From Actinotalea endophytica (GTDB taxonomy: Bacteria > Actinomycetota > Actinomycetes > Actinomycetales > Cellulomonadaceae): 64,000 nt of DNA. How positions within the stretch are numbered: position 1 is the first letter of the stretch; every line of letters starts with the position of its first letter. Location: NCBI RefSeq assembly GCF_025717005.1, contig NZ_JAOVZU010000009.1, positions 62,001 to 126,000 on the forward strand. The letters run 5' to 3'. Shown here one piece after another: positions 47,063 through 52,542 of this stretch. Position numbers and translations under genes: made by a program. Below the pieces are notes generated by a model. The model saw only the letters and a program-made list of their open reading frames with translations, was not told where the DNA came from and made no database searches.

Positions 47063-47335
47063 TCAGCCCACGGCGTCCAGGTCCGAGGCCAGCATGGCGG
47101 CCAGCTCGTCGAGCGCTCCGGCCCCCGCCTCGTCCGCCGTCGAGAGCTCGACCTGCTGCCCCTGCCGGACGCCGAGGCCCATCACCATGAGGATGCTCGA
47201 CGCGTCGACGCTCGGGCCTCCGGCGGGGCCGATCAGCACCTGGTGGCCGCACTGCGCGGCCGCCTTGGTGAACAGCGCGGCGGGTCGGGCGTGCAGCCCG
47301 GAGGCGGCCCCTACGGTCACGGTCCTGCTGAGCAT
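47063..47335 (-). CDS. ptsH: Phosphocarrier protein HPr
   Basis: 90 residues; carries phosphate from enzyme I to the sugar-specific EII proteins. The active-site H15 is in GLHARPAALFTKAA, and S47 in DASSILMVMGLGV corresponds to the regulatory serine of Gram-positive HPr. The ATG at 47335 follows AAGGGC. Its roughly 100-base leader holds an antiterminator-like sequence and a terminator with a T run, so the gene seems to be controlled by BglG-type antitermination. It is divergent from the beta-glucoside PTS genes. Confidence 0.96.
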   Translation of the reverse strand: MLSRTVTVGAASGLHARPAALFTKAAAQCGHQVLIGPAGGPSVDASSILMVMGLGVRQGQQVELSTADEAGAGALDELAAMLASDLDAVG

Positions 47336-47365: not shown

Positions 47366-47411
47366 AAAAAAGACCTGGGAAACGTCGCTCTCGCGAGTTC
47401 CACCAGGTCTT
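47366..47411 (-). terminator. Intrinsic terminator in the ptsH leader
   Basis: Read on the minus strand: AAGACCTGG (47411-47403) pairs with CCAGGTCTT (47378-47370) and a run of six T follows. The loop contains the short palindrome CTCGCGAG. It lies 31 bases before the ptsH start, so transcription would stop unless the hairpin is prevented. Confidence 0.8.
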
Positions 47412-47436
47412 GCCCGACGGGTGTCGGTCACAATCC
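47406..47436 (-). promoter_or_regulatory. Ribonucleic antiterminator (RAT)-like element of ptsH
   Basis: Minus-strand sequence beginning GGATTGTGACCGAC and ending GTCGGGCAAGACC. It keeps the conserved 5' GGATTGT and the GGGCAA-ACC 3' side of BglG-family RATs, with a CCGAC/GTCGG stem, and its last bases overlap the first arm of the terminator, as in known antiterminators. Confidence 0.65.
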
Positions 47437-47445
47437 GTGGCCACT

Positions 47446-47475
47446 GGTATAGGGCCACGTGTGCCACGGAGTCAA
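47446..47475 (-). promoter_or_regulatory. ptsH promoter
   Basis: On the minus strand TTGACT (47475-47470), 18 bases, TATACC (47451-47446). The start of transcription would fall just before the RAT-like element. Confidence 0.6.
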
Positions 47476-47712: not shown

Positions 47713-47740
47713 GGATTGTTACTGCGCGGCAGGCAAAACC
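47713..47740 (+). promoter_or_regulatory. Ribonucleic antiterminator (RAT) of bglF
   Basis: GGATTGTTACTGC (5' side) and GGCAGGCAAAACC (3' side) match the well-known BglG/LicT target almost base for base, with the stem ACTGC/GGCAG and the internal-loop bases conserved. Its last six bases are the first bases of the terminator stem, so binding of the antiterminator would block termination. Confidence 0.92.
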
Positions 47741-47787
47741 CGAGTCGGATCTCGTTCGTTGTGCGAGATCTCGTCTCGGGTTTTTTT
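47735..47787 (+). terminator. Intrinsic terminator in the bglF leader
   Basis: AAAACCCGAG (47735-47744) pairs with CTCGGGTTTT (47775-47784); an inner GATCTCG/CGAGATC pair extends the stem. Seven T bases follow (47781-47787). It lies 53 bases before the bglF start and is mutually exclusive with the RAT. Confidence 0.9.
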
Positions 47788-47840: not shown

Positions 47841-49721
47841 GTGGCAACTGCGAGCAAGTACGAGGTGCTCGCCGACGCCGTCCTTCGGGGCGTCGGTGGC
47901 GAGAGCAACGTCGCGTCGGTGACGCACTGCGCGACCCGACTTCGGTTCACGCTGAAGGACCGGGACAAGGCGGACAAGGCTGCGGTCGAGGCGACCCGTG
48001 GTGTCATCACGGTCGTCGAGTCCGGCGGCCAGTTCCAGGTCGTGATCGGCAACACCGTCAACAACGTCTACGAGGCCCTGGTGGCCAAGCACGACATCAA
48101 GGCCGGCGACGCCGTGCAGGGCGGTCTGCTGGCGAAGGCGATCGACCTGATCACCAGCATCTTCACGCCGTTCCTGTGGGTCCTCGCGGGCACCGGTCTG
48201 CTGAAGGCCCTGCTGGCGGTCTGGGTCAAGCTCCAGCCCGAGGCGGCCGCGAACTCGACCTACGCGATCCTGTACGTGGCCGGCGACGCACTGTTCCAGT
48301 TCCTGCCCATGCTGCTCGCGGTGACCGCGGCGAAGAAGTTCAAGGCGAACGTCTACACGTCGCTCGCGATCGCCGGCGCGCTGATCTACTCGGCGACCAT
48401 CGCGGTGATCCCGAACGCCGACGGCGTCTCGGTCACGCTGCAGGGCTTCGCCGGCGGCGACCAGCTCACCTTCATCGGGATCCCGGTGATCATGGTGAGC
48501 TATCTGTCCGCCGTCATCCCGACCATCCTCGCGGTCTATGCCCAGGCCAAGCTCGAGCACCTGCTGACCCGGGTGCTGCCCGAGGCGATCCGCAACTTCG
48601 TGACCCCGATGCTCGTCGTGGCGATCATCGTCCCGCTGACCTTCCTGGTCATCGGCCCGGTCTCCGACTGGGTCGGCACCGGCCTGTCCAACGGCGTCAA
48701 CTGGCTGTGGGGCCTCAGCCCGGTGATCGGCGGCGCGCTGATGGGCGCCTTCTGGCAGGTGTTCGTGATCTTCGGCGTGCACTGGAGCTTCGTCCCGGCG
48801 ATGATCCAGGACCTGTCCACCCAGGGCTACTCGCTGCTCACCGGTCCGCTGTTCGCCGCCGTGCTCGCGCAGGGTGCCGCCGCCGCCGCGGTGTTCGTCA
48901 AGACCCGCAACAAGGAGCTCAAGGAGGTCGCCGGCCCGGCCGCGATCTCGGGCATCCTCGCCGGCATCACCGAGCCCGCGATCTACGGCGTCACGCTGCG
49001 CCTGAAGCGGCCGTTCGTCTACGGCGTGATCGGTGGTGCGATCGGTGGTGCGATCGCCGCGGCCGGCGGCTCGGCCGCCGAGGGCTTCGTGCTCCCGGGT
49101 CTGATCACCCTCACCTCGACGATCAACATCGGCTCGTTCGCGATGCAGCTGCTCGGCACAGGTCTCGCCGTGGTGATCGCGTTCGTGCTCACCATGGTCC
49201 TCGGGTTCAAGGACCTGCCCTCCACGGCCGAGGCCGTCGCCGAGCCGGAGGATGCCGGCGAGGTCGCCTCCGAGGCGGTCGCGGTGACCGCGCCCGCGAT
49301 CGGCACCGTCGTGCCGCTCGACGCCGTCCCGGACAAGGTCTTCTCGTCCGGCGCCATGGGTGCCGGTCTGGCCGTCGTGCCGGCGGTCGGCGAGGCGTTC
49401 GCGCCGGTGTCCGGCGAGCTGGTCACCGTGATGCCGCACGCCTTCGGGATCCGCACCGACACCGGGCTCGAGGTGCTCGTGCACGTCGGCCTCGACACCG
49501 TCGAGCTCAAGGGCCGGCACTTCACGGCGGCCGTCGCGCAGGGCGCTCGCGTCCGGGCCGGCGACCTGCTCACCCAGTTCGACCTCGCTGCCATCGAGGC
49601 GGCCGGCTACAACCCGATCACGGTCATGATCGTCACCAACAACGGCCCGTACTCGGCCGTCGTCCCGGTGGCCACCGGCGACATCGCCAAGGGCGAGGTC
49701 GCGCTCGACCTGGTCGGCTGA
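47841..49721 (+). CDS. bglF: Beta-glucoside PTS permease EIIBCA
   Basis: 626-residue sugar transporter that takes up and phosphorylates beta-glucosides such as cellobiose analogues, salicin or arbutin. EIIB at the N-terminus with phospho-C30 (SVTHCATRLRFTL), a membrane EIIC (about 100-450), and EIIA at the C-terminus with H548 in EVLVHVGLDTVELKG. The order B-C-A is that of BglF/BglP. GTG start with GAGGAGG 6 bases upstream. It is followed by an abnormal G/C tract and then the phospho-beta-glucosidase gene. Confidence 0.96.
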   Translation: MATASKYEVLADAVLRGVGGESNVASVTHCATRLRFTLKDRDKADKAAVEATRGVITVVESGGQFQVVIGNTVNNVYEALVAKHDIKAGDAVQGGLLAKAIDLITSIFTPFLWVLAGTGLLKALLAVWVKLQPEAAANSTYAILYVAGDALFQFLPMLLAVTAAKKFKANVYTSLAIAGALIYSATIAVIPNADGVSVTLQGFAGGDQLTFIGIPVIMVSYLSAVIPTILAVYAQAKLEHLLTRVLPEAIRNFVTPMLVVAIIVPLTFLVIGPVSDWVGTGLSNGVNWLWGLSPVIGGALMGAFWQVFVIFGVHWSFVPAMIQDLSTQGYSLLTGPLFAAVLAQGAAAAAVFVKTRNKELKEVAGPAAISGILAGITEPAIYGVTLRLKRPFVYGVIGGAIGGAIAAAGGSAAEGFVLPGLITLTSTINIGSFAMQLLGTGLAVVIAFVLTMVLGFKDLPSTAEAVAEPEDAGEVASEAVAVTAPAIGTVVPLDAVPDKVFSSGAMGAGLAVVPAVGEAFAPVSGELVTVMPHAFGIRTDTGLEVLVHVGLDTVELKGRHFTAAVAQGARVRAGDLLTQFDLAAIEAAGYNPITVMIVTNNGPYSAVVPVATGDIAKGEVALDLVG

Positions 49722-51347
<1,626 letters not shown>

Positions 51348-51451
51348 CGACGGCGACGGTCGAGGTCCCGCTGCGGGGCCTCGACCGCGGGCAGGCGCTC
51401 GGGCAGGATCGGCTGGGGTGCCGCGGCTCTCGAGGGCGAGAGGGGATGGGC

Positions 51452-52309
51452 GTGAAGGTCCTCAAGGTCTTCAACAACAACGTCGTGCTCGGCGTCGACG
51501 ACCACGGCGCCGAGCTGGTGCTGCTGGGTCGGGGGCTCGGATTCCAGATGGCCCCCGGCGCCGAGATCGACCTGGAGCGGGTCGAGCGGCGCTTCGTCCC
51601 GAGCGGGGCGACGACGCCCGAGCGGATCGCGGCCTTCGTCGACGAGATCCCGCTGGCCGACATCGAGCTCACCGAGCGGGTCGTCGACCTGGCCCGGCAG
51701 CGACTCGGCGGGCACGTGACCGAGAACGTGCTGATCCCGATGGCGGACCACCTCAGCTTCGCGCTGCGTCGCGCCGCCGAGGGCGCCGGGGAGATCGAGT
51801 ACCCGTTGCAGTGGGAGGTGCACTCGCTCTACCCCGCCGAGGTCGCGGTCGCGCGTGAGGCGCTCGACCTCGTGGCGGCCGAGCGGGGTGTGCGGCTGCC
51901 GGACGTCGAGGCCGTGCCGCTCGCGCTGCACCTGGTGAACGCCCAGTTCGGCGCGGCCGACCTGAGCACCACCGTGCAGATGACCGAGCTGCTGCGCGAG
52001 GTGATCGACATCATCGAGTCGGAGTACCAGGTCGAGATCGACGAGGGCAGCGTCGACGTCGCCCGGTTCGTGACCCACCTGCGGTACCTCTTCGTGCGCC
52101 AGCGGGCGGGCAAGAAGCTGCGCGAGACACCTGAGGAGCTGCACGCGGCCCTGCGCAGCGCGCGCCCCAACGAGTACACCTCGGCGGGCCGGATCGGCAC
52201 GCTGCTCGCCGACCGGTTCGGCTGGGCGGTGACCACCGACGAGATCCTCTACCTCGCGCTGCACGTGAGCCGGCTGGTCGACGCGGCCGTCGCGGGCGGC
52301 GGGTCATGA
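51452..52309 (+). CDS. bglG: BglG/LicT-family transcriptional antiterminator
   Basis: 285-residue RNA-binding protein. Co-antiterminator domain at 1-55 (MKVLKVFNNNVVLGVDD) and two PTS regulatory domains with the four phosphorylatable histidines H100, H160, H209 and H271, matching LicT positions H100, H159, H207 and H269. GTG at 51452 gives the exact family N-terminus and has GAGAGGGG 6 bases upstream; the ATG at 51446 is too close to it. It should bind the RAT before bglF and perhaps the one before ptsH. It overlaps the next gene by 4 bases. Confidence 0.95.
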   Translation: MKVLKVFNNNVVLGVDDHGAELVLLGRGLGFQMAPGAEIDLERVERRFVPSGATTPERIAAFVDEIPLADIELTERVVDLARQRLGGHVTENVLIPMADHLSFALRRAAEGAGEIEYPLQWEVHSLYPAEVAVAREALDLVAAERGVRLPDVEAVPLALHLVNAQFGAADLSTTVQMTELLREVIDIIESEYQVEIDEGSVDVARFVTHLRYLFVRQRAGKKLRETPEELHAALRSARPNEYTSAGRIGTLLADRFGWAVTTDEILYLALHVSRLVDAAVAGGGS

Positions 52310-52542
52310 CCCTTGTGGAGGCGCTCCTGGAGGCCGTCGGCGGGCGCGCGAACGTCGCGTCGCTCACCCGGTGCTGGGCACGGCTGCGCTTCGAGCTGCA
52401 CGACCCCGAGCTGGTGGACCAGGCCGCGATCGACGCCCGGCCCGAGGTCGTCATCGCGGTGCACCAGCACGGACAGTTCCAGGTCGCGTTGCGCTCGGGC
52501 CTGCTCGAGACGTTCGATGGGCTCACGGACCTGCTCCGCTGA
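52306..52542 (+). CDS. Free-standing EIIB domain, glucose/beta-glucoside type
   Basis: 78 residues, nothing but an EIIB domain: LLEAVGGRANVASLTRC-WARLRFELHDP with phospho-C23. In normal EIIB the cysteine is followed by xTRLR; here it is CWARLR. The rest ends IAVHQHGQFQVALRSG as in the family. It has no EIIC or EIIA and is cotranslated with the antiterminator. It may phosphorylate or dephosphorylate the antiterminator or serve as an exchangeable EIIB. No such arrangement is familiar to me. Confidence 0.85.
   Translation: MTLVEALLEAVGGRANVASLTRCWARLRFELHDPELVDQAAIDARPEVVIAVHQHGQFQVALRSGLLETFDGLTDLLR

What the first reader, a model, noticed from the sequence alone, without database searches (positions are those of the whole stretch)
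47366..47475. BglG-type antiterminator/terminator leader on ptsH, the general PTS carrier
Seen: on the minus strand a promoter, then GGATTGTGACC...GGCAAGACC resembling a RAT, then a 9-bp terminator stem with six T, all before ptsH. Known: RATs normally control sugar-specific permease and hydrolase genes. Inference: the same antiterminator, whose activity depends on HPr phosphorylation, would control HPr synthesis, forming a feedback loop that ties the whole PTS to beta-glucoside supply.
Basis: partly seen in the sequence, partly recalled or inferred. Interest (0 to 1): 0.85.

Follow-up and report, generated by a model that had tools for sequence, protein, structure and literature searches.

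The report
RNA switch controlling a spare HPr
An actinobacterium appears to switch on a second copy of the sugar-transport phosphate carrier HPr with the same kind of RNA switch that turns on its beta-glucoside uptake genes, and a number of relatives do this with HPr and enzyme I together.

Summary
On the minus strand a promoter, a RAT (47436-47406) and an overlapping terminator (47411-47366) precede an HPr gene (47335-47063). The genome has two consensus RATs: this one and one 276 bp away, facing the divergent bglF-GH1-bglG operon. In 200 family genomes the motif occurs at 49 places in 28 genomes, the reversed pattern nowhere. Downstream lie HPr (27), bglF (19), GH1 (2) or neither (1). One more HPr leader was found by eye: 28 leaders, in 24 of 27 genomes with an antiterminator gene. 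Across 36 leaders, RAT and terminator stems covary at positions my pattern did not fix. What fails is 'the general PTS carrier': a ptsH-ptsI operon without RAT lies on another contig, so this is a second HPr; it groups with other RAT-linked HPrs, though these are not one clade. In relatives 17 of the 28 leaders drive ptsH-ptsI (gaps 2-59 nt); in G071 that operon holds the only enzyme I found. Best reading: BglG antitermination makes an auxiliary HPr beta-glucoside-inducible. Binding, inducer and expression are inferred, not shown.

The parts
47446..47475 (-). promoter TTGACT-18-TATACC
   Evidence: TTGAC at this place in 30 of 30 own-family leaders; strict scan does not list it
47406..47436 (-). 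RAT (ribonucleic antiterminator): GG/CC, UUG/CAA, CCGAC/GUCGG helices with two internal loops
47366..47411 (-). intrinsic terminator whose 5' arm (AAGACC) is the 3' arm of the RAT; six T
   Evidence: -26.6 kcal/mol, z -6.1
47063..47335 (-). second HPr gene (ptsH2), 90 aa, active-site His and Ser46-equivalent present
47713..47740 (+). RAT of the divergent bgl operon
47735..47787 (+). terminator of the bgl leader, overlapping its RAT
   Evidence: part of a weak Rfam bglG-cis-reg match, 27.4 bits against a cut-off of 80
47841..49721 (+). bglF-type PTS permease (EIIB-EIIC-EIIA)
49881..51347 (+). GH1 glycosidase (true start probably further in)
51446..52309 (+). BglG/LicT-type antiterminator: CAT RNA-binding domain and two PRD domains
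52306..52542 (+). stand-alone EIIB domain overlapping the end of bglG
   Evidence: similar hit after bglG in 9 further loci

Best explanation
The leader is a BglG/LicT-type antitermination switch on a second, auxiliary HPr gene. Without beta-glucoside, transcripts from the minus-strand promoter end at the terminator before ptsH. With substrate, BglF passes its phosphate to the sugar, BglG is no longer held inactive, binds the RATs of both divergent leaders, blocks both terminators, and so makes BglF, the GH1 enzyme, BglG and extra HPr together. The extra HPr, charged by the genome's one enzyme I, would raise phosphate flow to BglF. Shown: promoter-like boxes, RAT, overlapping terminator, linkage, conservation, covariation, and the presence of another ptsHI operon. 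Inferred: that this BglG binds this RAT, that beta-glucosides are the inducer, and what the extra HPr is for.
For: Two consensus RATs in the whole genome, both at this locus. RAT matches in 28 of 200 family genomes, 49 places, reversed control 0; targets HPr 27, bglF 19, GH1 2, other 1. Antiterminator (PF03123) in 27 of 28 RAT-positive and 0 of 22 RAT-negative genomes tested, out of 172 negative ones. RAT before HPr in 24 of the 27. In 9 of these 24 only one antiterminator gene was found, and 7 of the 9 (G050, G147, G125, G164, G017, and with one of the two RATs found by eye G174 and G040) have RATs before both HPr and bglF, so one protein should read both; G147 has the window's two RATs letter for letter. 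Covariation: RAT 95.5% of cells paired, 3 pairs changed on both sides; terminator 89.7%, 6 pairs; 0 of 500 shuffles reach the observed covariation score in either. RAT-to-HPr leaders also in 6 genomes of two other families. 37 other HPr-domain genes from 25 of these genomes score at most 16 of 21 for a RAT upstream, with no T-run (9 of the 37 are fusions I labelled DhaM-like or other, whose upstream DNA is no leader). BglG aligns with LicT over both PRDs with all four regulatory histidines (their role is recalled).
Against: No expression, termination or binding data. The ptsH RAT differs from the bglF RAT in the lower loop (CAAGACC against CAAAACC) and in stem and loop, and the genome has a second antiterminator (C15), so the cognate protein is not proven. 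Much of the RAT's invariance was built into my search pattern, so only the unfixed positions count as evidence; one of five RAT measures (further pair types) was not above shuffles (486 of 500 as high), the outermost upper-stem pair is unpaired in 12 of 25 cells, and the three innermost terminator pairs are unpaired in 10, 11 and 16 of 30. Two antiterminator genomes (G067, G009) have RAT-bglF but no RAT-HPr seen, and G099 carries ptsH-ptsI behind bglG in the bgl run instead. The RAT alone does not fold better than shuffles.
Confidence: 0.8

Rival explanations
1. The RAT is real but is read by the second antiterminator (contig C15), linking HPr synthesis to another sugar.
For: Two CAT_RBD genes in the genome; in L046, L050, L055, L061 and L062 the RAT-HPr lies next to a split-EII operon with a BglG-type gene of the kind seen on C15; the lower loop differs between the two window RATs.
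Against: The closest relative at this locus, G147, has identical RATs and only one antiterminator gene. The C15 EII leader has no consensus RAT.
Confidence: 0.1
2. The window HPr is the working HPr of the whole PTS and the leader ties all PTS sugars to beta-glucosides.
For: HPr domain with active-site His; in 17 relatives' leaders the RAT drives ptsH-ptsI, in G071 the only EI found.
Against: Another ptsH lies directly before the only enzyme I of this genome, without a RAT.
Confidence: 0.05
3. A constitutive promoter with an ordinary attenuating terminator; the RAT is a relic.
For: No functional data exist here.
Against: Covariation of both stems at positions not fixed by the search, and restriction of the motif to antiterminator genomes among those tested (27 of 28 against 0 of 22).
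Confidence: 0.04

Closest known systems
BglG/LicT-RAT antitermination of bgl operons
   Same: RAT consensus, overlapping terminator, antiterminator with CAT and two PRDs encoded in the same locus
   Different: A second RAT leader lies on an HPr gene (in relatives ptsH-ptsI), not on a sugar-specific gene
GlcT-ptsGHI of Bacillus subtilis
   Same: An antiterminator whose RAT can influence ptsH and ptsI expression
   Different: There the RAT is before ptsG and ptsHI also has its own constitutive promoter (PMC12445079, passages); here the RAT is directly before ptsH and the system is of bgl type
FPr/DTP of the E. coli fructose PTS (recalled)
   Same: An inducible HPr dedicated to one sugar pathway
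   Different: FPr is a fusion protein under FruR/Cra repression; here a free HPr under antitermination
Rfam RF03530 bglG-cis-reg
   Same: Matches the bglF leader weakly (27.4 bits, cut-off 80)
   Different: No match to the ptsH leader at E up to 5

Membership tests
BglG/LicT-type RAT leader | RAT consensus with three helices and two internal loops | tested here: met
BglG/LicT-type RAT leader | intrinsic terminator sharing bases with the RAT 3' arm | tested here: met
BglG/LicT-type RAT leader | cognate antiterminator (CAT_RBD + 2 PRD) in the genome | tested here: met
BglG/LicT-type RAT leader | protein binds the RAT and prevents termination | not testable with these tools
   needs binding and transcription assays
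Rfam RF03530 bglG-cis-reg | score above the curated cut-off | tested here: not met
   ptsH leader no match; bglF leader 27.4 of 80 bits
GlcT-ptsGHI | RAT before a glucose permease gene ptsG, followed by ptsHI | tested here: not met
   RAT directly before a monocistronic ptsH; convergent gene downstream
HPr | PF00381 with phosphorylatable His in GLHARPA | tested here: met
general ptsH (ptsHI operon) | followed by ptsI, sole free HPr of the genome | tested here: not met
Ser46-regulated HPr (HprK) | HPr kinase in the genome | tested here: inconclusive
   no match above cut-off in 13 genomes, one below it in G050, but the search also did not report Bacillus subtilis among its controls, which has HprK (recalled)

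The most novel reading that the evidence does not exclude
In a lineage of actinobacteria the BglG-type antiterminator has captured the PTS phosphate carriers themselves: RAT leaders sit directly on HPr or HPr plus enzyme I, so the regulator controls synthesis of the very proteins whose phosphates control the regulator. In species such as G071, where the only enzyme I found lies behind such a leader, entry of all PTS sugars would depend on this switch.
Probability: 0.4. Interest if true: 0.7.

Novelty: new variant of a known kind. Interest (0 to 1): 0.55.

Why it matters
Textbook PTS logic treats HPr and enzyme I as standing general components and RATs as switches on sugar-specific genes. A conserved RAT leader directly on ptsH or ptsH-ptsI would make the phosphate carriers part of a sugar-specific regulon and close a feedback loop through BglG phosphorylation. 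The single-enzyme-I species makes a clear test possible. It would also show an inducible, pathway-dedicated HPr outside the fructose systems (the latter recalled).

Tried and rejected
Rfam: no match above any cut-off in the window; a permissive search gave only a weak bglG-cis-reg match, and a chance-like miRNA match, in the bglF leader. The idea that this is the genome's general HPr was rejected. G008's lone motif match lies in a genome without antiterminator gene and with no bgl or HPr gene near it, and was treated as chance. Class-level search: of 354 genomes of other orders none matched (narrower pattern, so other RAT forms would be missed). HPr kinase search inconclusive. No structure prediction was run.

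Limits: the RAT patterns fixed most of the conserved letters, so invariance there is selection; G174's RAT-HPr and the bglF RATs of G102 and G040 escaped the pattern and were seen only by eye, so other misses are likely. The tree has few columns and weak deep forks; 4 rows under 60 aa were dropped and two RAT-linked HPrs cut by contig ends (L060, L067) were not entered. Antiterminators, HPr and EI were counted in 50 of the 200 family genomes; antiterminators were not searched in the other families. In one search, 23 of the 28 leaders were examined; 4 were left out because the contig ends near HPr and the window was judged. The leader of the own ptsHI operon contains an N run and homopolymers some way upstream, so it is not fully readable.

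Full report
The thing itself. On the minus strand, 47475 to 47366, lie TTGACT-18-TATACC, a 31-nt RAT, and a terminator ending in six T. The RAT reads as GG/CC, UUG/CAA and CCGAC/GUCGG helices separated by the two asymmetric internal loops of this motif class (class features recalled). The last six bases of the RAT are the first six of the terminator stem, so the two folds exclude each other. The terminator folds at -26.6 kcal/mol (z -6.1); the RAT alone is unremarkable (z -1.45). The next gene, 47335-47063, is an HPr (PF00381) with the active-site motif GLHARPA and a Ser at the position of Ser46.

Surroundings. 276 bp away, on the plus strand, a consensus RAT with its own overlapping terminator precedes bglF (EIIBCA), a GH1 enzyme, a BglG/LicT-type antiterminator (CAT_RBD and two PRD stretches) and a stand-alone EIIB domain. 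BglG aligns with LicT across both PRDs with the four regulatory histidines in place (their role is recalled). These are the only two consensus RATs in the 4.25-Mb genome. There are two antiterminator genes, three HPr domains and one enzyme I. One HPr domain is in a DhaM-like protein behind a DhaL-like gene (my reading) and one lies directly before ptsI on contig C19, with no RAT seen in the readable part of its leader. The window gene is therefore a second HPr.

Relatives. In 200 family genomes the motif is matched at 49 places in 28 genomes, the reversed pattern at none. By tblastn the downstream genes are HPr (27), bglF (19), GH1 (2), and one stray in G008. G174's HPr leader, missed by the pattern, also holds a RAT, giving 28 RAT-HPr leaders in 24 genomes. 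Antiterminator genes were found in 27 of the 28 RAT-positive genomes (not G008) and 0 of 22 negative ones tested. Of the three antiterminator genomes without a RAT-HPr, G099 has ptsH-ptsI behind bglG in the RAT-led bgl run, and G067 and G009 have only RAT-bglF. Two relatives are named by a shared 500-nt stretch and contig length: G050 is Actinotalea soli BY-33 and G190 Cellulosimicrobium cellulans DE0111; G050 is in the window's own genus group. In the order (396 genomes, narrower pattern) 20 genomes match, 14 outside the family: 6 of these have the RAT before HPr (five of family f9, one of f3) and 8 before an EII gene. Among 354 genomes of other orders none matched.

Selection on structure. 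36 leaders (28 HPr and 2 GH1 of the family, 6 from outside; 30 distinct) were aligned without reference to structure. RAT: 95.5% of cells paired, three pairs with changes on both sides, none of 500 shuffles reaches the covariation score, and sliding the partner lowers every paired percentage; but the count of further pair types is not above shuffles and the outermost upper pair is often open. Terminator: 89.7% paired, six pairs with double changes, 0 of 500 shuffles reach the covariation score; the three innermost pairs are open in a third to half of the rows. The lower RAT helices and the bases AAGACC were fixed by my search pattern and so say nothing; the upper RAT helix (apart from its fixed letters), the terminator's inner pairs and its GGTC arm were free to vary. 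TTGAC lies upstream in 30 of 30 family leaders and 0 of 6 others.

Variation of the target. Of the 28 HPr leaders, 17 are followed on the same strand by enzyme I after 2-59 nt, 7 are not (six, and the window), and 4 are cut by a contig end. In three of the seven (L052, L064, L068) a GH1 gene follows HPr, and in two further leaders (L045, L057) GH1 stands directly behind the RAT. G071, a single-contig genome, has one enzyme I by two searches, and it is the one 2 nt behind the RAT-led ptsH; G071 does have a further HPr gene outside this operon, besides a DhaM-like one. 37 other HPr-domain genes of these genomes, chosen, have no RAT-like score above 16 of 21 upstream. In a tree of 66 HPrs the 32 RAT-linked ones need 4 label changes against 22.2 on shuffled labels; they are strongly clustered but not one clade, and two HPrs without RAT fall among them.

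Mechanism. The most likely working is LicT/BglG antitermination acting on both divergent leaders. In 9 genomes with a RAT-HPr only one antiterminator gene was found; 7 of these have RATs before both HPr and bglF, so one protein should serve both. Inducer, binding and flux effect are inferred. Because PRD-type antiterminators are themselves phosphorylated by HPr and EII (established for LicT and BglG; cited in the passages of PMC6850760), raising HPr could feed back positively or negatively; the sign cannot be told from sequence.

Known or new. In B. subtilis GlcT acts at ptsG, and ptsHI also has a constitutive promoter (PMC12445079, passages). In C. glutamicum ATCC 13032 the only antiterminator gene is a pseudogene (PMC2222622, passage). 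Nine full-text searches of the open PMC library listed no title or abstract describing a RAT directly before ptsH; I read passages of three papers only, lists were cut at 20, and subscription journals are not held. I rate it a new variant of a known kind.

Noticed in passing
window 52306-52542 (+): A 78-aa stand-alone PTS EIIB domain overlaps the end of bglG; a similar EIIB hit (41-51% identity) follows bglG in 9 further loci (L043, L047, L048, L052, L064, L065, L066, L068, L070). It could carry phosphate to or from BglG.
   Followed up: partly
G000:C15, L038: A second BglG-type antiterminator near split EII genes; the EII leader lacks a consensus RAT but shows a RAT-like hairpin with altered middle helix, possibly a separate specificity (by eye).
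   Followed up: partly
L046 near 7290 (and L121): Leader of a split-EII operon divergent from RAT-ptsHI holds a variant RAT (GGGTTGTTACTCCTCGGAGGCAAGATC) without an obvious T-run terminator.
   Followed up: no
window 49732-49850: Homopolymer block (17 G, 8 C, 18 C) between bglF and the GH1 gene, like the block with an N run upstream of ptsHI on C19; probably an assembly scar.
   Followed up: partly
L066/L207 (G071): Single-contig genome in which the only enzyme I found lies directly behind the RAT-led ptsH.
   Followed up: partly
L041 12138-12395 (G099): ptsH-ptsI sits at the end of the RAT-led bgl run instead of behind its own RAT; its HPr groups with the ptsHI-type HPrs, and the genome has 7 HPr domains.
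   Followed up: no
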